Shown piece after piece: positions 2,277-9,582 of a stretch of 16,872 nucleotides of DNA (its first letter is position 1; the number at the start of each line of letters is the position of its first letter). The translations under genes and the position numbers were made by a program. Source of the stretch: DRGV01 sp018903055 [NCBI: bacterium] (GTDB lineage Bacteria; UBP18; UBA7526); assembly GCA_018903055.1 (NCBI GenBank), contig JAHIPW010000064.1, forward strand, positions 1-16,872, given 5' to 3'. The notes beneath the pieces are model-generated. The model saw nothing but the letters and a program-made list of their open reading frames with translations, was not told the origin of the DNA and did not search any database.

Positions 2277-3272
2277 ATGAAGGATACTGTAGATATTACT
2301 GATGAATTAAGGGAAAGATTAAAGAAGGCTGTCGGGCGGAATTCTGCAGAGGGGTTACTCTTCTCTGGAGGATTGGATACCAGTATCTTGGCGGTTCTAA
2401 ATCCCAATATGAACCCCGCCCATTTTACTTCGAAGCATTCCTTTGTAGCAGAAAGGGGCGGGGTGAAGGCCATCACGGTTAGCCTGGAATCCTTTGGAGA
2501 AGATGTCTCATACGCTAAATTGGTAGCCAACCATTTAAAACTAAACCATTATCATAGAAGGGTAAGTATAGATGAAGCGATAGATTCTATTCCCGATGTA
2601 ATAAAAATCCTTAAGAGCTTCGACCCAGCAATCCCTAATGATTTGGTTGTTTACTTTGGCTTAAAATGGGCGAAAGAGCTGGGGATTAAAAAGATAATGA
2701 CGGGCGATGGAAGTGATGAGTTATTTGCCGGCTATGATTTTATGAGAAATATCCGAAACCTGGACGAGTATCTGAGAAGAATAACTAAAACTATGTCTTT
2801 TAGTTCTAACCAATTAGGCGACTTTTTTGACATTAAGATTAAACAGCCCTTTTTAAATAAAAGATTCATTGATTTTTCTCTTGGAATACCCGTAGAACTT
2901 AAGATAAAAGAAGAAAACGGAAATTTATGGGGGAAATGGATTCTACGAAAGGCCTTTGAAAAAATGCTGCCTGCCGAGATTGTCTGGCAGGACAAAAGAC
3001 CCCTGGAGTATGGCTCGGGTATGAGGAAGTTAAGAAAGATTATTACCTCAAAGATCTCGGATGAGGAGTTTGAACATAAAAGCAAACAATATCCAATAAA
3101 GTTTATGAATAAGGAGCATCTCTACTATTATGAGATTTACAAAAAAGAAGTGGGAGAAATTCCTGGGCCTAAGAATAATCAAAAAGAATGTCCGGGATGC
3201 GGGGCGGGAATGGAACCCACTGCCTTTCACTGTAAGGTTTGTGGATATGTTTGCGAGAGGGAGGTGAATTAG
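2277..3272 (+). CDS. Asparagine-synthase-like ATP pyrophosphatase with C-terminal zinc ribbon
   Basis: This is the synthetase half of the asparagine synthase family without the glutaminase domain. It shows the PP-loop FSGGLDTS near residues 29-36, a second nucleotide and metal motif TGDGSDELFAGYDF near 142-155, and the conserved LPAEIVWQDKRPLEYGSG segment. Such enzymes adenylate a carboxylate and pass it to a nitrogen nucleophile. The last 30 residues carry CPGCG...CKVCGY, a Cx2C...Cx2C zinc ribbon, which may bind a partner. Residues 46-63 are an in-frame palindromic insertion; without it the protein has 313 residues and reads NPN-MKAITV after the PP-loop. The gene is six bases after cobS and directly abuts the small peptide gene. 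Roles in corrinoid side-chain amidation or in modifying the adjacent peptide are speculation. The family call is firm, the substrate unknown. Confidence 0.85.
   Translation: MKDTVDITDELRERLKKAVGRNSAEGLLFSGGLDTSILAVLNPNMNPAHFTSKHSFVAERGGVKAITVSLESFGEDVSYAKLVANHLKLNHYHRRVSIDEAIDSIPDVIKILKSFDPAIPNDLVVYFGLKWAKELGIKKIMTGDGSDELFAGYDFMRNIRNLDEYLRRITKTMSFSSNQLGDFFDIKIKQPFLNKRFIDFSLGIPVELKIKEENGNLWGKWILRKAFEKMLPAEIVWQDKRPLEYGSGMRKLRKIITSKISDEEFEHKSKQYPIKFMNKEHLYYYEIYKKEVGEIPGPKNNQKECPGCGAGMEPTAFHCKVCGYVCEREVN
2410..2467 (+). mobile_element. TGAA-flanked palindromic element inside the asnB-like gene
   Basis: TGAA lies at 2410-2413 and 2464-2467, 54 bp (18 codons) apart. The arms CCCCGCCC (2414-2421) and GGGCGGGG (2456-2463) are perfectly complementary. 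The interior is weaker, with a CTTCGAAG palindrome. The encoded ends read MNP... and ...GVK, as in the cobS element. Precise removal gives NPN-MKAITVSLE, a sensible strand after the PP-loop. The insertion follows the first strand and loop of the ATP-binding fold, so tolerance there is surprising. Confidence 0.8.
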
Positions 3273-3389
3273 ATGAAAAAACCAAATTGCAAGGCAAGTC
3301 ACAGGGCAAAGAAAGACATTATTGCCCACCGAAAGAAATGTAAGGCAAGTGGAACTGGTCTTTCCCATTACGTCCTTGAGAAGAAATGA
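3273..3389 (+). CDS. cbpA: Small Cys-containing modified-peptide precursor (CbpA / cobopeptide-like)
   Basis: A 38-residue basic peptide starts at the base after the stop of the preceding gene, with GAGGGAGG about seven bases upstream. It has two Cys in an internal repeat: CKASH at residues 6-10 and CKASG at 23-27, followed by TGLSHYVLEKK. There is no signal peptide. It lies just before a radical SAM/SPASM enzyme, the classic arrangement of a ribosomally made peptide and its maturase. From memory this matches the TIGRFAM-defined 'cobopeptide' precursor CbpA, named for its occurrence among cobalamin genes; I could not run a search. The mature product and its function are not known to me. Translation is probably coupled to the upstream asnB-like gene. 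Confidence 0.75.
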   Translation: MKKPNCKASHRAKKDIIAHRKKCKASGTGLSHYVLEKK

Positions 3390-3407
3390 TGTAAAGTTTC
3401 ATTTAAA

Positions 3408-3450
3408 CCGGCTGAAAGGTTCCGGGTTACTACACCGGGACCTTTCCCGG
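3408..3450 (+). promoter_or_regulatory. Strong hairpin between the peptide gene and its maturase gene
   Basis: A 12-bp stem (3414-3425 with 3435-3446, one T.G wobble, 9-base loop) is extended by CCGG/CCGG pairing (3408-3411 with 3447-3450) across a 2-base bulge. No T-run follows, so it is not a canonical terminator. Its place in the 88-bp gap between the precursor and maturase genes suggests it could protect the short upstream mRNA or reduce read-through, giving more peptide than enzyme. It could also be another dispersed palindrome. The structure is read directly; the role is inference. Confidence 0.6.
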
Positions 3451-3477
3451 CAGGCAGAAGGGAGTAAGGAATAAGAT

Positions 3478-4932
3478 ATGGAAAAGTTGCAAATGAAAGA
3501 CAATTGCGTCTCATCTCGGGGAATTTATTTTAATACCGGAGGTGGGATCCAGCTTCAAGTTATAGATATCAAACATAAAGACTATATAGGATTGGTATCA
3601 GCGGATACTGCATTCTGGTCACTTGTCAAAAAAACCCGACTGGGCCAGGCACTGACTGATTCGTCTTTCCTCAGCAAGTACCGTAAAAAAGAAAAATCTT
3701 TCGCTGATGAGATAAGCGCCCTAAGGTTTGGTTTGAAACCTTCCGCAGTTTATTTTAACCCTACTGATCGCTGTAACCTGAATTGTTCTTATTGTTATAT
3801 TCCGGAAAGATTGCGCAAATATGGCAAACATATGTCACAAGAAAGACTCATGCAAGCGCTTGAAATTCTAAAGATTTATTTCAAGTCAACTATACCTAAG
3901 GGTCGGATACCACAAATTGTTTTCCATGGCGCTGAACCAATGCTTAACAAAAAATCAGTTTTCCGCGCTATAGACAAATTTAGGGAAGATTTCGATTTCG
4001 GCATACAGACCAACGGCACACTTCTGAATGATGAGGAAATAAAATTTCTAACCTCAAGAGGAATAAGCATCGGGCTTTCCCTCGATGGTCACATTCGGGA
4101 GGTAGCCGACCGGCTACGCAAGACCTGGGATGGCCAGGGAGTTTTTAACAAGATAGTAGACGTAATGAATCGCCTCAGAGGTTACAGGAATTATTCAGTG
4201 ATTTGCACGGTAACAAAAGAAAATATGAGTTCGCTTACTAAGATGGTTGACTTTTTACATAATATAGAAGTGCCAGTTTGTATGTTAAATCCTGTTCGCT
4301 GTACACTGCCGGGTGGCCGGGAGAGTAAGCCGGCGGATCACCAACTTGCCAAGTATTACCTGAGGGCACTTGACCGAACCTACGAGCTTTATAGAAAGAC
4401 GGGCCGCCGTCTTGTGGTGGCAAACTTTGCCAATGTCTTGATGAGCATTATTGCGCCGAATGGCCGACGGCTGATGTGTGATATCTCACCCTGCGGTGGT
4501 GGAAGATGCTTTTTTGCGCTTTCCAGCAGTGGGGATTTATTTCCCTGTAGTGAATTTATTGGTCTGAAAAAATTCAAAGGCGGCAACATCTTTAAAGATG
4601 ATATCAATGAGGTTTTAGAAACAGAGCCATTCAAACTTGTTACCAACAGGCTTATTGAGAATATCGAACCCTGTTCTCATTGCGCCATTCGTCATTTTTG
4701 CGGCTCACCTTGTCCTGCCGAGGCCTATGAAATGAACCCCGCCCTTTCTAAAAAGACCTTAAGAAAGAGCGGGGTGAACGGATCCCTAGAGAAGCCAGGA
4801 GCATTTTGTGAACTTTATGAAGAGCAGGTGCGTTACGCCTTACGTTTGATTGCCGACGGCAAAGAAGATGCGTATCTTTGGGATGGTTGGGATAAGGGAA
4901 TATCTACCAGTCTTGAAATAACAAAACTTTAA
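3478..4932 (+). CDS. cbpB: Radical SAM/SPASM peptide-modifying enzyme (CbpB-like)
   Basis: The radical SAM core carries CNLNCSYC at residues 99-106 (Cys99, Cys103, Cys106), which would bind the 4Fe-4S cluster that cleaves S-adenosylmethionine, followed by HGAEPM and GLSLDG, typical of peptide maturases. The C-terminal third is a SPASM domain with many Cys (CDISPCGGGRC, FPCSEF, EPCSHCAIRHFCGSPC, GAFC) for auxiliary iron-sulfur clusters. The N-terminal ~90 residues may form a peptide-recognition region. Its likely substrate is the 38-residue peptide encoded just upstream. From memory it corresponds to CbpB, the partner of CbpA near cobalamin genes. Residues 420-433 are an in-frame palindromic insertion between two Cys groups of the SPASM domain, yet all recognisable Cys remain. 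The start is the ATG at 3478, after GGAGTAAGGAATAAG. Confidence 0.82.
   Translation: MEKLQMKDNCVSSRGIYFNTGGGIQLQVIDIKHKDYIGLVSADTAFWSLVKKTRLGQALTDSSFLSKYRKKEKSFADEISALRFGLKPSAVYFNPTDRCNLNCSYCYIPERLRKYGKHMSQERLMQALEILKIYFKSTIPKGRIPQIVFHGAEPMLNKKSVFRAIDKFREDFDFGIQTNGTLLNDEEIKFLTSRGISIGLSLDGHIREVADRLRKTWDGQGVFNKIVDVMNRLRGYRNYSVICTVTKENMSSLTKMVDFLHNIEVPVCMLNPVRCTLPGGRESKPADHQLAKYYLRALDRTYELYRKTGRRLVVANFANVLMSIIAPNGRRLMCDISPCGGGRCFFALSSSGDLFPCSEFIGLKKFKGGNIFKDDINEVLETEPFKLVTNRLIENIEPCSHCAIRHFCGSPCPAEAYEMNPALSKKTLRKSGVNGSLEKPGAFCELYEEQVRYALRLIADGKEDAYLWDGWDKGISTSLEITKL
4733..4778 (+). mobile_element. TGAA-flanked palindromic element inside cbpB
   Basis: TGAA lies at 4733-4736 and 4775-4778, 42 bp (14 codons) apart. 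Stem CCCCGC (4737-4742) pairs with GCGGGG (4769-4774), and after one mismatch CTTTCT (4744-4749) pairs with AGAAAG (4762-4767). It is the shortest of the three TGAA elements and has a single hairpin with a 12-base loop. The encoded ends again read MNP and GVN. Removal joins AYEM to NGSLEKPGAFC, a natural-looking SPASM sequence. Confidence 0.8.
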
Positions 4933-4949
4933 CCGGAGATTCTTACATA

Positions 4950-5627
4950 ATGGATAATACTAAACAACCCCTAAAAACTTTTGTCTCCTGGAGTGGGGGC
5001 AAAGAGACGTCTCTGGCCTGCTATAGAGCAATGCAGGATAAGAATCTTGAAGTCAAATATCTTTTGAATATGGTATCAGAGGATGGTAGGCATTCTCGTT
5101 CTCATGGAATCAGTTCAGCTCTTTTAAAAGCCCAATCAGATACTATGGGCATCCCCATCATCCAAAGAAAGACCACCTGGAAAGGTTATGAAGGGGTATT
5201 TAAAGAAGCAGTTTCCGGATTAAAAGAGGAAGGTATCAAGGTAGGCGTTTTTGGCGATATTGACCTTCAGGAACATAGGGATTGGGTCGAGAGGGTATGT
5301 AGAGAGATAGGGATTAAGCCATTATTACCCCTATGGAAAGAAGGTCGGGAGGGGTTGCTTAAAGAATTTATCCGGGCTGGTTTCAAAGCCATTGTCATAG
5401 CTACTAGGGCTGATTTGTTAGGCAGAGAGTGGTTAGGCCGCAAGATAGATGAAGAATTCATAAGAGATCTGAAACGATTAGGCAGTATCGATCTCTGTGG
5501 GGAGAAAGGTGAATACCATACTTTTGTTTATGATGGCCCTATTTTTAAAGAACTTGTAAGATTTTCAATCGGTAAAAAGATATTTAAAAATAAACATTGG
5601 TTTTTGCAACTTGCGGTCAAAAAATAA
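4950..5627 (+). CDS. DUF71/COG2102 (Dph6-like) ATP pyrophosphatase, probable B12-salvage subgroup
   Basis: This 225-residue protein is an adenine-nucleotide alpha-hydrolase-like enzyme. It has the PP-loop WSGGKETSLA near residues 14-23, a MVSEDGRHSRSHG segment that would follow the second strand, GDIDLQEHRDWVERVC in the middle, and the signature LCGEKGEYHTFVYDGPIF near the C-terminus. Eukaryotic and archaeal relatives amidate diphthine on EF2, which bacteria lack. I recall a comparative-genomics study of DUF71/COG2102 that predicted a B12-salvage role for a bacterial subgroup; the surrounding genes here support that. The substrate is unknown. It lies 17 bp after cbpB and 16 bp before the small radical SAM gene, in an apparent operon. 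The family call is firm. Confidence 0.83.
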   Translation: MDNTKQPLKTFVSWSGGKETSLACYRAMQDKNLEVKYLLNMVSEDGRHSRSHGISSALLKAQSDTMGIPIIQRKTTWKGYEGVFKEAVSGLKEEGIKVGVFGDIDLQEHRDWVERVCREIGIKPLLPLWKEGREGLLKEFIRAGFKAIVIATRADLLGREWLGRKIDEEFIRDLKRLGSIDLCGEKGEYHTFVYDGPIFKELVRFSIGKKIFKNKHWFLQLAVKK

Positions 5628-5643
5628 TTAAATAGGGATAAAA

Positions 5644-6372
5644 ATGGGAGTTTATCACATAACTTATACACCAAACTTAAAAGAGATTTGTCTTTATTTC
5701 AATGGAGGATGCAATTTTTCCTGCCATGGATGTATTACTGACCATCATCCCCAGGATTGCCATTTAGAAAAGAGCATCAGAGCACCAGAGCATAAGAGCG
5801 CCAGTATTTTTATAGATAAAGTTATTTCTTATTTAGAGCCGTTAAGTTTTAAGAAAGTAATCTTTTTAGGTAAAGAGCCGACGCAGGATGCAGATTTTTT
5901 AGCTCTGGCAAAAATTCTGAAAGAAAAGCTCTCCACTTATAATATCCTTCTCACCAATGGTTACAGATTTGTAGAAGATAGGGCAATTGATGAAATCTGC
6001 GTAAGCATTAAGGCTATATCAAAAAATATCTTCAGTGATTTTACCGGCAAGAATAACATAGAATATGTTTTGGAGAATTTCGTCAAATATACCAGTATAC
6101 CCAATCTTAAGGTACGAGCAGAGAGTGTTTTTATTCCAGGATATATCGATAAAGAAGAGATAGAGAAAATTGCCCAATTCATTGCTGGCGTAAGTGTGGA
6201 AATACCTTATCGTATTGATGGTTATATTCCCATTAAAGAGAAGGACAGATTTAGAAGACCTACAAAAGATGAGATGGAGGAAGCCAGGAAGGCTATAGAA
6301 AAATATTTAAAGAATGTCTCTATTCTGCATTATGGAGTAAGAGTAAAATATAAAGTTAAGAGGATATACTGA
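5644..6372 (+). CDS. Small radical SAM protein of unknown substrate
   Basis: The 242-residue protein has CNFSCHGC at about residues 23-30, the CxxxCxxC cluster motif, then a TIM-barrel-like sequence with FLGKEPTQDADF in the position of the GGEP motif and LLTNGY afterwards, as in glycyl-radical-activating enzyme relatives. There is no SPASM domain or extra Cys cluster at the C-terminus. AGGGATAA precedes the ATG. The stop overlaps the btuF start by one base, so translation is probably coupled to the B12 importer. Residues near 43-53 (SIRAPEHKSAS) come from a tandem array of four 8-bp units, an apparent low-complexity insertion shortly after the cluster motif. A role in corrinoid salvage is suggested only by position. 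Confidence 0.75.
   Translation: MGVYHITYTPNLKEICLYFNGGCNFSCHGCITDHHPQDCHLEKSIRAPEHKSASIFIDKVISYLEPLSFKKVIFLGKEPTQDADFLALAKILKEKLSTYNILLTNGYRFVEDRAIDEICVSIKAISKNIFSDFTGKNNIEYVLENFVKYTSIPNLKVRAESVFIPGYIDKEEIEKIAQFIAGVSVEIPYRIDGYIPIKEKDRFRRPTKDEMEEARKAIEKYLKNVSILHYGVRVKYKVKRIY
5771..5802 (+). repeat. Four degenerate 8-bp tandem units inside the radical SAM gene
   Basis: The units read AGAGCATC, AGAGCACC, AGAGCATA, AGAGCGCC. The first four bases (AGAG) and the fifth (C) are constant. Eight is not a multiple of three, so gain or loss of one unit would shift frame. The divergence of the copies suggests the array is old and no longer slipping. Confidence 0.7.
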
Positions 6373-7235
6373 TGATAAAATCAAATATCAAAAATCAAAT
6401 ATCAAAAATTTTATCCTTTATTTGTGCTCTTTTACTCTTTTGCTCTTTTGCTCTTACTAAAGAAAATTATCCACAGAGAATAATCTCTTTGGGTCCAGGT
6501 ATAACTGAAGAACTTTATCTCTTAGGAGTAGAAAATAAACTTATAGCGAATACCGTATATTGCGAGAGACCACCCGAGGCACAGAAGAAAGAAAAGATAG
6601 GAACAGTAATAAAAGTAGATTTAGAAAAAATTGTAAGTCTCGAACCCGATCTGGTAATAGCTACTTCCCTGAGTAATCCAGAGCAGGTGGAGAAGTTAAA
6701 GAATTTAGGAATAAAGGTGGTGACTTTCCCTGCTACGAAAAGCTTCTTCCAACTTTGTGAGCAGTTTTTAGAATTAGCAAAATTAGTGGGCGAGGAAGAA
6801 AAAGCAGCCAGAATTATTCATCAGGCAAAAAAGGAAGTAGACGCTATTAGAAAAAAAGTTAAAGATTTGCCAATGCCCAAGGTCTTTGTCCAGGTAGGAG
6901 CTAAGCCTTTATTTACAGTAACTAAAAATTCCTTTGTTCATGATTTCATAAAATTTGCTGGTGGGATAAATATTACAGAAAAGGCAAAATCTGGACTTTA
7001 TAGTCGTGAGAAAGTACTTAAATCTAATCCGGATATAATCATTATTGTAACTATGGGAATTGCCGGAAAAGAAGAAAAGAAAATCTGGCAAAAATATAAG
7101 ACTATGAAAGCTGTAAAAAATAATAGAATTCATATTATTGACTCTTATAAACTTTGCTCTCCCACACCAGTAACCTTTGTGGAAGCATTAAAAGAGATGG
7201 GGGAGATTTTACATCCCCGCTTAGAAACGGACTAA
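6372..7235 (+). CDS. btuF: Periplasmic cobalamin-binding protein of the ABC importer
   Basis: BtuF captures corrinoids in the periplasm and delivers them to BtuC. The 287-residue protein starts with basic residues and a hydrophobic stretch (about residues 12-28), consistent with a Sec signal peptide; there is no clear lipobox. The mature part begins PQRIISLGPGITEELYLLG, the usual start of class III binding proteins, and continues with LVIATSLSNPEQVEKL, PKVFVQVGAKPLFTV and a C-terminal PTPVTFVEAL. The ATG overlaps the previous stop by one base and lies three bases plus a stop before btuC. The N-terminal coding region holds two tandem arrays, a 14-bp unit twice and an 8-bp unit about 3.6 times, so the leader seems to have been rebuilt from repeats. 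A heme or siderophore relative is less likely given the neighbours. Confidence 0.88.
   Translation: MIKSNIKNQISKILSFICALLLFCSFALTKENYPQRIISLGPGITEELYLLGVENKLIANTVYCERPPEAQKKEKIGTVIKVDLEKIVSLEPDLVIATSLSNPEQVEKLKNLGIKVVTFPATKSFFQLCEQFLELAKLVGEEEKAARIIHQAKKEVDAIRKKVKDLPMPKVFVQVGAKPLFTVTKNSFVHDFIKFAGGINITEKAKSGLYSREKVLKSNPDIIIIVTMGIAGKEEKKIWQKYKTMKAVKNNRIHIIDSYKLCSPTPVTFVEALKEMGEILHPRLETD
6378..6456 (+). repeat. Two tandem arrays in the btuF signal-peptide region
   Basis: A perfect 14-bp unit occurs twice (6378-6391 and 6392-6405). Further on, 8-bp units read CTCTTTTA, CTCTTTTG, CTCTTTTG and a partial CTCTTA at 6427-6456. Both encode the basic and hydrophobic parts of the signal peptide, where sequence is loosely constrained. 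An 8-bp slip would shift frame and silence btuF. Confidence 0.7.
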
Positions 7236-7238
7236 ATT

Positions 7239-8255
7239 ATGAGAGAAAAATTAATCCGCTGGATTATCTGGATATTAATTTTAGGGGGCATTCTTTTAGG
7301 AGTAAGTATCTTCTCTCTCTGTGTTGGTTCAGCCGGTATACCGGTTAAGAAGATTGTTTCTTTAATTCTTGAGGGTAGGGGTACCACTGAATATAGCATT
7401 CTTTTTGATATTCGCCTGCCACGCATTATTTTAGGTTTTGCTATAGGCGGTGCATTGAGTCTGGCTGGGGTAATCTTGCAGGGAATGTTTCGCAACCCCT
7501 TAGTAGAACCCTATACCCTGGGTATTTCTGGCGGAGCCGCTCTGGGTGTGTGTTTAAATATTGTTTTCCGATTAAATAAGGCTTTAGGTATCTTAAGTTT
7601 GCCTCTTTGTGGTTTTTTAGGAGCGCTTTTGGTTATTTTGCTGGTTTATTCTTTAAGTATGAGAAAGGGCATATTAAAGATTCAAGGACTGCTCCTTACA
7701 GGAGTGATGATAAGTTTTATCTCATCATCCTTAATCATGCTTATTATGGCTATTTCTCGCACAGAAGACCTCCATGGGATTGTCTTCTGGATAATGGGCT
7801 CTTTAGAAGAGCCAAATTGGTTTCTTATAAAAATAGCTCTTCTGGTATCTATTCTTGGTTTAGTTATATCTTATCTTTTTTCAATAGACCTTAATGCCTT
7901 TGCCTTAGGAGAAGAAGAGGCCTTACATTTAGGGGTAAATACAGAAAGAACTAAAAAGATACTTTTTATACTTGCTTCTTTACTTACTGGTTGTAGTGTG
8001 TCAATGGCGGGCATTATTGGATTTGTAGGATTGGTTGTTCCCCATTTTGTGCGTATGTTTGTTGGGGGAGACCATCGGATTCTTTTGGTTAGTTCCTTTC
8101 TTTGTGGGGCAAGTTTCTTAATTTTCTGTGATACCTTAGCAAGAACAGTTATCTCCCCTATGGAGTTACCTGTGGGAGTAATTACTGGTATATTGGGAGG
8201 AAGCCTTTTTGTTTACGCCTTAACTAAAAGGCAGGTTCTTTTAGGAGAAAAATAG
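7239..8255 (+). CDS. btuC: Cobalamin ABC transporter permease
   Basis: A 338-residue FecCD/BtuC-type permease, very hydrophobic, with about ten membrane segments. Family motifs include LFDIRLPRIILGFAIGGALSLAGVILQGMFRNPLVEPYTLGISGGAALG near residues 48-96 and the C-terminal GIIGFVGLVVPHFVRMFVGGDHR near 251-273, which lies by the coupling region that contacts the ATPase. It would form the homodimeric channel of BtuC2D2F. The ATG is three bases after the btuF stop; the ribosome site is weak, so coupling is likely. The stop TAG overlaps the btuD GTG start by one base. Assignment to corrinoids rather than siderophores rests on the surrounding cobalamin genes. Confidence 0.9.
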   Translation: MREKLIRWIIWILILGGILLGVSIFSLCVGSAGIPVKKIVSLILEGRGTTEYSILFDIRLPRIILGFAIGGALSLAGVILQGMFRNPLVEPYTLGISGGAALGVCLNIVFRLNKALGILSLPLCGFLGALLVILLVYSLSMRKGILKIQGLLLTGVMISFISSSLIMLIMAISRTEDLHGIVFWIMGSLEEPNWFLIKIALLVSILGLVISYLFSIDLNAFALGEEEALHLGVNTERTKKILFILASLLTGCSVSMAGIIGFVGLVVPHFVRMFVGGDHRILLVSSFLCGASFLIFCDTLARTVISPMELPVGVITGILGGSLFVYALTKRQVLLGEK

Positions 8256-9055
8256 TGCTTAACATAAAAAATCTGACTTGTGGATACGATTCAAAAATAG
8301 TCCTTCGAGATATCAGTCTTAGAATAGAAAGCAGAGAACTTGTAGGAATAATTGGCCCAAATGGTTCAGGAAAAACAACTCTTCTTCGGGCGATAACTAA
8401 GATAATTAAACCGGCAAAAGGTGAAATCTTATTTGAAGGAAAGAATATCGAGGAATTAAGATATAAAGAACTGGCTAAAAATATAGCTGTTGTTTCTCAA
8501 AGTCCAGCGATAAATTTTATGAGCGTGGAAGAATTTGTTCTTTTAGGCAGGATTCCACATTATAAAAGATTTCAATTTTTAGAGACAAATAAGGACAAAG
8601 AGATTGCTAAAAAGTGCGCCATCCTAACCGATACCCTCAAGCTAAAAGACCGGCCTATGCCAGAGATAAGTGGTGGAGAAAGACAACTTACCCTTATCGC
8701 TCGCGCTCTAACTCAGGAACCAAAACTACTTTTATTGGATGAACCCACTGCTCATCTTGATATAACCCATCAGGCAGCAATTCTGGACCTGATAAGGAGA
8801 TTAAATAGAGAATTTGGTCTCACAGTAATTATGGTTTTGCATGACCTTAATTTAGCCAGCGAATATTGTCATCGGTTAGTACTTATTAATGAAGGACGAA
8901 TCTACAAAACTGGATTACCCCAAGAAGTATTAAACTATCGGATTATTGAAGAGGTTTATAAAACAGTGGTGGTTGTGGAAAAAAACCCTATTTCTTTTAA
9001 ACCTTATATATTGGTAGTGTCTGAGGAGGAAAGGCAGAAGAGGGGGGAACGATGA
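8255..9055 (+). CDS. btuD: Cobalamin ABC transporter ATPase
   Basis: A 266-residue ABC ATPase that powers BtuC. All motifs are present: Walker A GPNGSGKTT near residues 35-43, Q-loop VVSQSPA, signature EISGGERQ, Walker B LLLLDEPTAHLD and the switch histidine in LHDLN. The start is GTG at 8255, overlapping the btuC stop (TAGTG), with AGGAGA about eight bases upstream. The end overlaps the cobA start by four bases (ATGA). It is of normal length and has no visible insertion. Tight coupling from btuF through cobA suggests one transcript for import plus adenosylation. Confidence 0.92.
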   Translation: MLNIKNLTCGYDSKIVLRDISLRIESRELVGIIGPNGSGKTTLLRAITKIIKPAKGEILFEGKNIEELRYKELAKNIAVVSQSPAINFMSVEEFVLLGRIPHYKRFQFLETNKDKEIAKKCAILTDTLKLKDRPMPEISGGERQLTLIARALTQEPKLLLLDEPTAHLDITHQAAILDLIRRLNREFGLTVIMVLHDLNLASEYCHRLVLINEGRIYKTGLPQEVLNYRIIEEVYKTVVVVEKNPISFKPYILVVSEEERQKRGER

Positions 9056-9582
9056 AAAGAAAAGGACTAATTCAGGTCTATACTGGAGATGGTAAGGGCA
9101 AGACCACGGTCGCTGTTGGATTAGCCTGTCGGGCATGCGGTCATAATTTAAAGGTCTGTTATGTCTATTTCCATAAAGACCCCAAAATTTGGGAATATGG
9201 CGAGCACCGTACGCTACGAAAATTAGGAGTAGATACCTTCGGATTTGCGAAAAAGCATCCGCATTTTTTTAAAGAGATAGGCCCAGATGAAATCCGCAGA
9301 GAATGTCTTGAAGGTTTGGAATTTATCAAAAAAGTTTATCAAGAAAACAAATACGACATTCTGATATTAGATGAGATAAACATCTCTATACGGGATGGAT
9401 TTTTGAAAGAAGAGGAGGTTTTGAATATATTAGATTCCAAGCCAGAAAATTTAGAACTCATTCTGACTGGCCGCGGTGCAACAGAAAAGATAATTGAAAA
9501 AGCAGATTTAGTTAGCCAGATAAAAAAGATAAAACACCCCTATGATTTTGGGGTAAAAAGAAGAAAAGGAATTGAATATTAG
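9052..9582 (+). CDS. cobA: ATP:cob(I)alamin adenosyltransferase (CobA/BtuR type)
   Basis: CobA transfers the adenosyl group of ATP to reduced corrinoid cobalt, needed before nucleotide-loop assembly. The 176-residue protein has the family P-loop YTGDGKGKTT near residues 10-19, the strand VCYVYFHKDP, the Walker-B-like DILILDEIN near 103-111, LILTGRGA and the ending HPYDFGVKRRKGIEY, close to the HPF..G...R.GIE terminus typical of CobA. The start overlaps btuD (ATGA). Placement directly after the importer suggests incoming cobamides and precursors are adenosylated at once. Confidence 0.93.
   Translation: MKRKGLIQVYTGDGKGKTTVAVGLACRACGHNLKVCYVYFHKDPKIWEYGEHRTLRKLGVDTFGFAKKHPHFFKEIGPDEIRRECLEGLEFIKKVYQENKYDILILDEINISIRDGFLKEEEVLNILDSKPENLELILTGRGATEKIIEKADLVSQIKKIKHPYDFGVKRRKGIEY

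What the first reader, a model, noticed from the sequence alone, without database searches (positions are those of the whole stretch)
3273..4932. Putative modified-peptide system embedded in a B12 salvage locus
A 38-residue peptide with repeated CKAS motifs, unlisted by simple long-ORF scans, lies just before a radical SAM/SPASM maturase. I recall this pair as CbpA/CbpB (cobopeptide), defined by sequence and context; I know of no described product. Possible roles are a corrinoid-binding or trafficking peptide, a redox cofactor, or a B12-responsive signal. The two Cys and repeated motif suggest two modification sites.
Basis: partly seen in the sequence, partly recalled or inferred. Interest (0 to 1): 0.85.

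Follow-up and report, generated by a model that had tools for sequence, protein, structure and literature searches.

The report
B12-linked modified peptide and its maturase
A tiny gene and the enzyme that probably alters its peptide sit among vitamin B12 genes, and in many relatives the pair lies behind a B12-sensing RNA switch, so the uncharacterised peptide probably helps bacteria handle scarce vitamin B12.

Summary
The 38-residue peptide (3273-3389) and the radical SAM/SPASM enzyme (3478-4932) exceed the curated NCBIfam cut-offs for CbpA and CbpB. Window included, 72 of 72 loci with a located cbpB start and enough upstream DNA carry cbpA just upstream. Its core, R-x-x-C-x(5-7)-G-L-S-H-[YF], is nearly invariant, and its spacing classes follow the CbpB tree.

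New here: a cobalamin riboswitch lies just upstream of cbpA in 43 of 69 testable related loci, several of which look like stand-alone cbpA-cbpB units. Most others sit among cobamide genes; 69 of 75 loci show one link or the other. CbpB genomes include ones with and without corrin-ring genes, pointing to a shared step. No riboswitch was found in the window or its draft genome.

Most likely: a peptide made when B12 is scarce, modified by CbpB on its Cys...GLSH segment, that handles corrinoid inside the cell. A RiPP is strongly suggested; the corrinoid role is inferred. It is a new member of a named, uncharacterised family.

The parts
3273..3389 (+). cbpA, 38-aa modified-peptide precursor
   Evidence: TIGR04164 40.2 bits, cut-off 35; conserved upstream of cbpB
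3330..3371 (+). conserved core of CbpA, residues 20-33 (RKKCKASGTGLSHY): the likely modified segment
   Evidence: R 73/73, C 72/73, G 73/73, L 73/73, S 72/73, H 73/73, Y 58 or F 15 of 73 cores
3288..3299 (+). first CKAS (residues 6-9), not conserved in relatives
   Evidence: alignment A2 and precursor list
3408..3450 (+). RNA hairpin between cbpA and cbpB; role unknown
   Evidence: 91-nt intergenic stretch z -2.38; L002 -3.23, L006 -4.11, L019 -6.39; four loci of other types -0.93 to -2.29; 101-nt window stretch z -2.90. L082, same operon type, has too short a gap for it
3478..4932 (+). cbpB, radical SAM/SPASM peptide maturase with an N-terminal domain that may be an RRE
   Evidence: TIGR04163 713.8 bits; model pLDDT 88.8; best fold match 5WHY (CteB) Z 33.6, model residues 25-460
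2277..3272 (+). AsnB-like synthetase domain protein with C-terminal zinc-ribbon-like Cys motif, abutting cbpA
   Evidence: PF00733; upstream of cbpA also in L002, L006, L019, L082, L085, L088
4950..5627 (+). DUF71 ATP pyrophosphatase, B12-type by motif (EKGEYH)
   Evidence: PF01902 185.7 bits; compare ENGE[FY]H in passages of PMC3541065
5644..6372 (+). second, small radical SAM protein
   Evidence: PF04055 42.8 bits
254..2270 (+). cobT and cobS, lower-loop assembly
   Evidence: TIGR03160 and TIGR00317 above cut-offs
6372..9582 (+). btuF-, btuC-, btuD-like corrinoid importer genes and cobA-like adenosyltransferase
   Evidence: PF01497, PF01032, PF00005; CobA models matched below their cut-offs, 151.6 vs 167.75 for TIGR00708
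10377..15960 (+). TonB-dependent receptor (BtuB-like, below the TIGR01779 cut-off), ExbB, ExbD, TonB, CbiB
   Evidence: CbiB by similarity to the L018 protein that carries PF03186

Best explanation
cbpA-cbpB is a two-gene RiPP-type system of cobamide (vitamin B12) metabolism. Steps: (1) in many lineages a cobalamin riboswitch precedes it, so it should be made when B12 is scarce (riboswitch found by sequence; repression by B12 inferred from the known behaviour of such switches). (2) The N-terminal domain of CbpB, RRE-like by fold, holds the short basic front of CbpA (inferred). (3) The radical SAM core activates a residue of the invariant GLSH[YF] segment and links it to the single conserved Cys, closing a loop of 5-7 residues, most likely as a thioether (inferred from the nearest relatives; no chemistry shown). 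(4) The modified peptide stays in the cell and binds or hands on corrinoid, with the invariant His and/or the Cys as cobalt ligand, at a step shared by salvage and de novo pathways such as post-import handling, adenosylation or late assembly (inferred).
For: Family models. cbpA directly upstream of cbpB in 72 of 72 loci with a located cbpB start and enough upstream DNA (window and L046 included), and in L064 by motif. Five core classes lie on the tree of 70 CbpB with the minimum of 4 changes; shuffled mean 34.1, 0 of 200 as low. Cobalamin riboswitch on the same strand ahead of cbpA in 43 of 69 related loci with enough upstream DNA: 77-300 nt (median 115) before the start codon in 42, about 160 nt before the core in L064 (from; counts repeated); 27 of 29 opened loci of the phylum of G015. 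L006 and L019 have it ahead of cobC, about 6 kb upstream in the same gene run. 67 of 75 loci have a riboswitch or a B12 gene within the DNA held; L056 and L057 add a same-strand cbiC match just upstream, so 69 of 75. CobS in 73 of 80 CbpB+ genomes against 39 of 80 without CbpB; CbiC (corrin ring) in 49 against 15. Genomes with CbpB and no CbiC match exist (31 of 80, among them G000, G006-G011, G023), so a role in corrin-ring making or cobalt insertion alone is unlikely. Best fold matches of CbpB are mostly peptide or protein modifiers: CteB, anSME, ChlB, TigE, SuiB, SkfB. Radical SAM and SPASM cysteines invariant in 54 sequences. A Cys as axial cobalt ligand has a precedent in BtuM (abstract start of PMC6072759 in the listing).
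Against: No direct evidence of corrinoid binding or of any modification. No riboswitch in the window or elsewhere in its 85%-complete genome; the contig begins 253 nt before cobT, and L006 and L019 carry theirs further upstream than that. 24 of 69 testable related loci have none in the DNA held, among them 17 of 17 of the divergent group L090-L106. The Methylovirgula plasmid copy (L107) has no match to a riboswitch model that found 9 of 9 loci known to have one, and lies near pqqA, pqqD, pqqE with no B12 gene annotated within 12 kb. L084 and L090 show no B12 link. One core (L104) has Gly for the Cys. The CbpA model is poor (pLDDT 65.7). Genome counts are not corrected for shared ancestry or for draft genomes.
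Confidence: 0.4

Rival explanations
1. CbpA is the source of a small redox or other cofactor, as PqqA is for PQQ: CbpB makes the cross-link, the rest is trimmed away, and the product helps reduce or adenosylate corrinoids.
For: Radical SAM/SPASM enzymes make such cofactors (PqqE, passages of PMC8326336); PqqE is among the fold matches; the Methylovirgula copy lies near pqqA, pqqD, pqqE; a cobA-like gene lies in the window.
Against: No peptidase or finishing enzyme was seen to recur beside riboswitch-led loci (only L002-L022 were compared gene by gene, and ten neighbours were annotated). Conservation spans the core rather than two residues.
Confidence: 0.18
2. CbpA is a secreted corrinoid-scavenging peptide (a 'cobalophore', working as methanobactin does for copper, a recalled comparison) taken back through the TonB-dependent receptor and BtuFCD.
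For: Riboswitch placement; receptor, TonB-ExbBD and BtuFCD genes in the window and several operons.
Against: By eye no hydrophobic signal sequence in the precursors listed (no predictor was run); no exporter recurs beside riboswitch-led loci in the part compared; CbpB is commoner in genomes with a corrin-ring gene, which should need scavenging less.
Confidence: 0.14
3. CbpA is a B12-starvation signal or a competitive antimicrobial peptide.
For: Small basic peptide apparently under nutrient control.
Against: Core almost invariant across loci of several phyla; no immunity or export gene seen to recur; placement inside cobamide operons.
Confidence: 0.1
4. The CbpA product stands in for a B12-dependent function when B12 is missing, as MetE does (recalled comparison).
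For: Riboswitch ahead of what looks like a stand-alone two-gene unit in several loci.
Against: Elsewhere it runs together with genes that make or import B12, which a substitute would not need; found mostly in genomes with CobS (73 of 80).
Confidence: 0.08

Closest known systems
CbpA/CbpB ('cobo_pep'), NCBIfam TIGR04164/TIGR04163
   Same: Both proteins exceed curated cut-offs; precursor upstream of enzyme.
   Different: This copy has an extra, non-conserved N-terminal CKAS and no detected riboswitch; no function was found described in the papers searched.
SCIFF / CteA-CteB ranthipeptides
   Same: Closest solved fold (that 5WHY/5WGG is CteB is recalled and fits PMC8326336); thioether-forming precedent (PMC8326336 passages).
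   Different: One conserved Cys per core, not six; CbpB scores 120.8 bits against the SCIFF maturase cut-off of 425.
PapB-type ranthipeptide maturases
   Same: Second-best NCBIfam model (149.8 bits).
   Different: Below the cut-off of 340; no conserved acidic residue near the Cys in CbpA.
DUF71-B12 salvage clusters (PMC3541065, passages)
   Same: DUF71 beside Btu transport genes, as the paper reports for 75 of 102.
   Different: The paper's main text has no occurrence of 'radical SAM' or 'cobopeptide'.

Membership tests
CbpA (TIGR04164) | profile score at or above curated cut-off | tested here: met
   40.2 bits vs 35
CbpB (TIGR04163) | profile score at or above curated cut-off | tested here: met
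   713.8 bits vs 375
CbpA/CbpB | precursor encoded directly beside maturase | tested here: met
   88 nt apart in the window; 72 of 72 testable loci
Radical SAM/SPASM peptide maturase | CxxxCxxC motif and SPASM cysteines | tested here: met
   C99, C103, C106 and C334, C339, C357, C399, C402, C408, C412, C444 invariant in 54 sequences; PF04055, PF13186. The SPASM spacing pattern is recalled
Radical SAM/SPASM peptide maturase | N-terminal peptide-recognition (RRE) domain | tested here: inconclusive
   alignment to 5WHY spans model residues 25-460; the domain was not folded or searched alone
RiPP | enzyme-dependent modification of the peptide | not testable with these tools
   needs mass spectrometry
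SCIFF | six cysteines in about 45 residues | tested here: not met
   two Cys in the window peptide, one conserved
PapB ranthipeptide maturase (NF047865) | score above cut-off | tested here: not met
   149.8 vs 340
Cobalamin-riboswitch-led unit | RF00174 upstream in this genome | tested here: not met
   none in window or genome; the contig edge lies just before cobT, so loss by truncation is possible
Cobalamin-riboswitch-led unit | RF00174 upstream in relatives | tested here: met
   43 of 69 testable loci directly, 2 more about 6 kb upstream, 24 none

The most novel reading that the evidence does not exclude
A ribosomally made, radically cross-linked peptide serves as an intracellular corrinoid carrier: a peptide chaperone for vitamin B12, switched on by B12 shortage and shared by salvagers and de novo makers in several phyla.
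Probability: 0.3. Interest if true: 0.88.

Novelty: new member of a known kind. Interest (0 to 1): 0.62.

Why it matters
Cobamide metabolism is among the best-mapped cofactor pathways, yet here is a two-gene unit, often behind its riboswitch, whose product I could not find described. The riboswitch, the core motif, the evidence against a corrin-ring-only role and a sequenced soil bacterium carrying the pair (Methylovirgula sp. HY1) turn a named but orphan family into a testable question.

Tried and rejected
Two modification sites from repeated CKAS: rejected, the first copy is not conserved. Some relatives do have an N-terminal Cys (for example L088, L094-L096, L099, L100, L103, L104), but at no fixed place.

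Riboswitch in the window: none at gathering score, at E up to 10, with a model built from nine relatives, or in the whole genome. Control: the model found the switch in 9 of 9 loci searched that Rfam had marked, though it missed the second, weak site of L006.

Role in corrin-ring synthesis or cobalt insertion only: unlikely, 31 of 80 CbpB+ genomes have no CbiC match (drafts). A recurring extra partner gene (exporter, peptidase) beside riboswitch-led loci: none seen; RND pump genes near L009, L012 and L015 only (Pfam run on L012). The 1.5-kb flanks of L053-L106 were compared only with known B12 proteins.

CbpA fold: low-confidence hairpin, not relied on. CbpA profile against solved structures: two antibody chains at E 0.05-0.07, taken as chance. 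Phages: no CbpB; plasmids: one.

Papers: 35 papers held three of four terms and 20 were listed; in the two opened, 'cbpa' is part of a journal DOI, and the rest were judged by title only. The one paper speaks of B12-dependent radical SAM proteins, not of this system (two passages).

Script slips: the motif was too narrow; one search lost ten peptides through an index error, corrected; L064 is missed by the cbpB pattern. L003 and L087 have too little upstream DNA for cbpA; L021 and L022 lack the cbpB start.

Limits of the counts: one search tested 80 CbpB+ genomes and left out two (G764, G790) to fit the cap; the 80 CbpB- genomes are 5 of the window's phylum plus 75 taken at about every fourth handle from the first parts of two lists. 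Searches scored at most four candidates per genome, so 36/395 and 33/384 are lower bounds; 30 matches of each were opened as loci, the weakest not. In one search, seven of the eight comparison genomes had been picked from loci already seen to hold CobQ.

Full report
What is there. The ORF at 3273-3389 encodes 38 residues with CKAS at 6-9 and 23-26; the ORF at 3478-4932 encodes a 484-residue radical SAM/SPASM protein. Both exceed the curated NCBIfam cut-offs for CbpA and CbpB (40.2 vs 35 bits; 713.8 vs 375). The peptide's start codon follows the stop of the upstream AsnB-like gene directly. An RNA hairpin lies between cbpA and cbpB (3408-3450; z -2.38), with stronger stems in three relatives of the same operon type (L002, L006, L019) and weaker ones in four other loci; L082, of the same type, has no room for one. 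Its role is unknown; setting the ratio of precursor to enzyme is a guess.

Relatives. A scan of genome contigs gave 21 loci; 20 of their 21 genomes pass the CbpB cut-off. Searches of whole genomes with TIGR04163 found CbpB in 36 of 395 genomes of the phylum of G015 (locus L011, Thermodesulfobacteriota by the label), 33 of 384 of the phylum of G009 (locus L005, Omnitrophota), and 1 of 6 in the window's own phylum. I examined 75 distinct loci (L002-L022, L053-L106) besides the window, and L046. Of 74 cbpB start regions located by motif (window and L046 included), 72 carry a cbpA just upstream and the other two (L003, L087) have too little upstream DNA; L064, missed by the cbpB motif, also has cbpA. 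The motif R..[CG]x5-7GL[SA]H[YF] occurs 73 times in 1,042,590 six-frame codons, always in cbpA.

The core. Across 73 cores (72 loci, L018 with two): Arg 73, Cys 72, Gly 73, Leu 73, Ser 72, His 73, Tyr 58 or Phe 15. The peptides were found by a GLSH-like pattern, which would bias these figures if peptides had been missed, but no testable locus failed. The distance from Cys to GLSH is 5 (52 cores), 6 (4) or 7 (17). Third-position changes dominate clearly in the two large spacing-5 classes; the spacing-7 class is more diverged, with more non-synonymous than synonymous codon differences (1252 vs 749). On a tree of 70 CbpB the five core classes need four changes, the least possible: peptide and enzyme classes travel together. 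The window's first CKAS is not part of the core. L018 has two whole cores in tandem, L104 has Gly in place of Cys, and L020 leaves the usual tail after GLSHY and has cbpB split over two ORFs.

B12 control. Rfam searches found a cobalamin riboswitch on the same strand ahead of cbpA in 43 loci; for 42 the gap to the start codon is 77-300 nt, median 115, and L064 fits the same place. 27 of the 29 loci opened from the phylum of G015 (L053-L081) have it. In L009 and L014 the next gene downstream of cbpB lies on the other strand, and in L013 it comes after a TPP riboswitch of its own, so the pair looks like a complete unit there; in L018 and L058 cobamide genes follow. Of 69 loci with enough upstream DNA, 43 have the switch directly, L006 and L019 about 6 kb upstream ahead of cobC, and 24 show none in the DNA held: the 17 loci of the divergent group L090-L106, and L002, L056, L057, L082, L084, L085, L088. 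Of those 24, 20 lie among cobamide genes, and L056 and L057 follow a same-strand cbiC match. In all, 69 of 75 loci are tied to B12; the other six are four loci at contig edges (L008, L010, L021, L022) and L084 and L090. The DNA held ranges from about 1.5 to 10 kb on a side, less at contig ends.

Genomes. CbiC (corrin ring) matched in 49 of 80 CbpB+ and 15 of 80 CbpB- genomes, CobS (late assembly) in 73 and 39. Split by phylum, for that of G015 CobS is in 34/36 and 26/42 and CbiC in 33/36 and 15/42; for Omnitrophota CobS 31/31 and 10/33, CbiC 11/31 and 0/33 (Fisher p from 9e-4 to 7e-10). Among CobS+ genomes alone CbiC is in 32/34 vs 13/26 (p 1.5e-4) and 11/31 vs 0/10 (p 0.04) (no correction for shared ancestry). 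CbpB thus goes with cobamide assembly and more often with de novo synthesis; yet the window's genome and several Omnitrophota have it without CbiC (drafts, so single absences are weak). A step common to both lifestyles is the simplest reading.

The enzyme. The CbpB model (pLDDT 88.8) matches 5WHY best (Z 33.6, rmsd 3.3, 374 aligned, model 25-460), with anSME and ChlB within 1.5 Z. I recall 5WHY as CteB; in passages of PMC8326336 CteB has an N-terminal RRE and forms a Cys thioether. That supports a peptide maturase that uses the conserved Cys; which residue it joins is not shown. GLSH[YF] is the only other near-invariant stretch besides the Arg. The Tyr/Phe swap argues against chemistry at a phenol ring.

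How it most likely works. See Best explanation. I hold the RiPP step at about 0.85, a role in corrinoid supply at about 0.75, and the specific corrinoid-handling mechanism at about 0.4. A Cys as axial cobalt ligand has a precedent in BtuM (abstract start in the listing).

Counter-evidence. The window and its genome have no detectable riboswitch.

Known or new. The family was named before. Four paper searches (cobopeptide: 0 papers; the two accessions: 0; CbpA/CbpB with radical SAM and SPASM: 35, of which 20 listed, judged by title and two opened at passages; cobalamin riboswitch with radical SAM and precursor peptide: 0) gave no description of it; a fifth listed one skin-microbiome paper whose passages do not concern it. 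The library lacks most subscription journals, so the riboswitch link may be known to the family's curators; the name itself suggests that a B12 connection was noticed.

Noticed in passing
window 2277-3272: AsnB-like synthetase matching only the C-terminal part of AsnB, with a zinc-ribbon-like tail, sits where some sister operons carry cobQ. Of 7 genomes with it, 5 have no CobQ match, G023 a weak sub-cut-off one and G621 a true one; 8 of 8 comparison genomes have CobQ, but seven were picked because their locus showed it. It may be a non-orthologous corrinoid amidating enzyme.
   Followed up: partly
window 5644-6372: Small radical SAM protein of no exact family; matches beside the AsnB-like gene in L002, L006, L019 and L085 (30-64% identity), none in the flanks held of L082 and L088.
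   Followed up: no
window 4950-5627: DUF71 protein carries EKGEYH, close to the ENGE[FY]H motif given for the B12 subgroup in passages of PMC3541065; 116.7 bits against the diphthine ligase cut-off of 197.3.
   Followed up: partly
L107 11804-13383: cbpA-cbpB on a 278-kb plasmid of Methylovirgula sp. HY1, an alphaproteobacterium, near pqqA, pqqD, pqqE.
   Followed up: partly
L104 1679-1807: CbpA core with Gly in place of the conserved Cys; real variant or assembly error.
   Followed up: no
L090-L106: Divergent Omnitrophota CbpB group (about 478-524 bits) with YRLKCAKTANGLSHF-type peptides; 16 of 17 lie among cobamide genes, none has a nearby riboswitch.
   Followed up: partly
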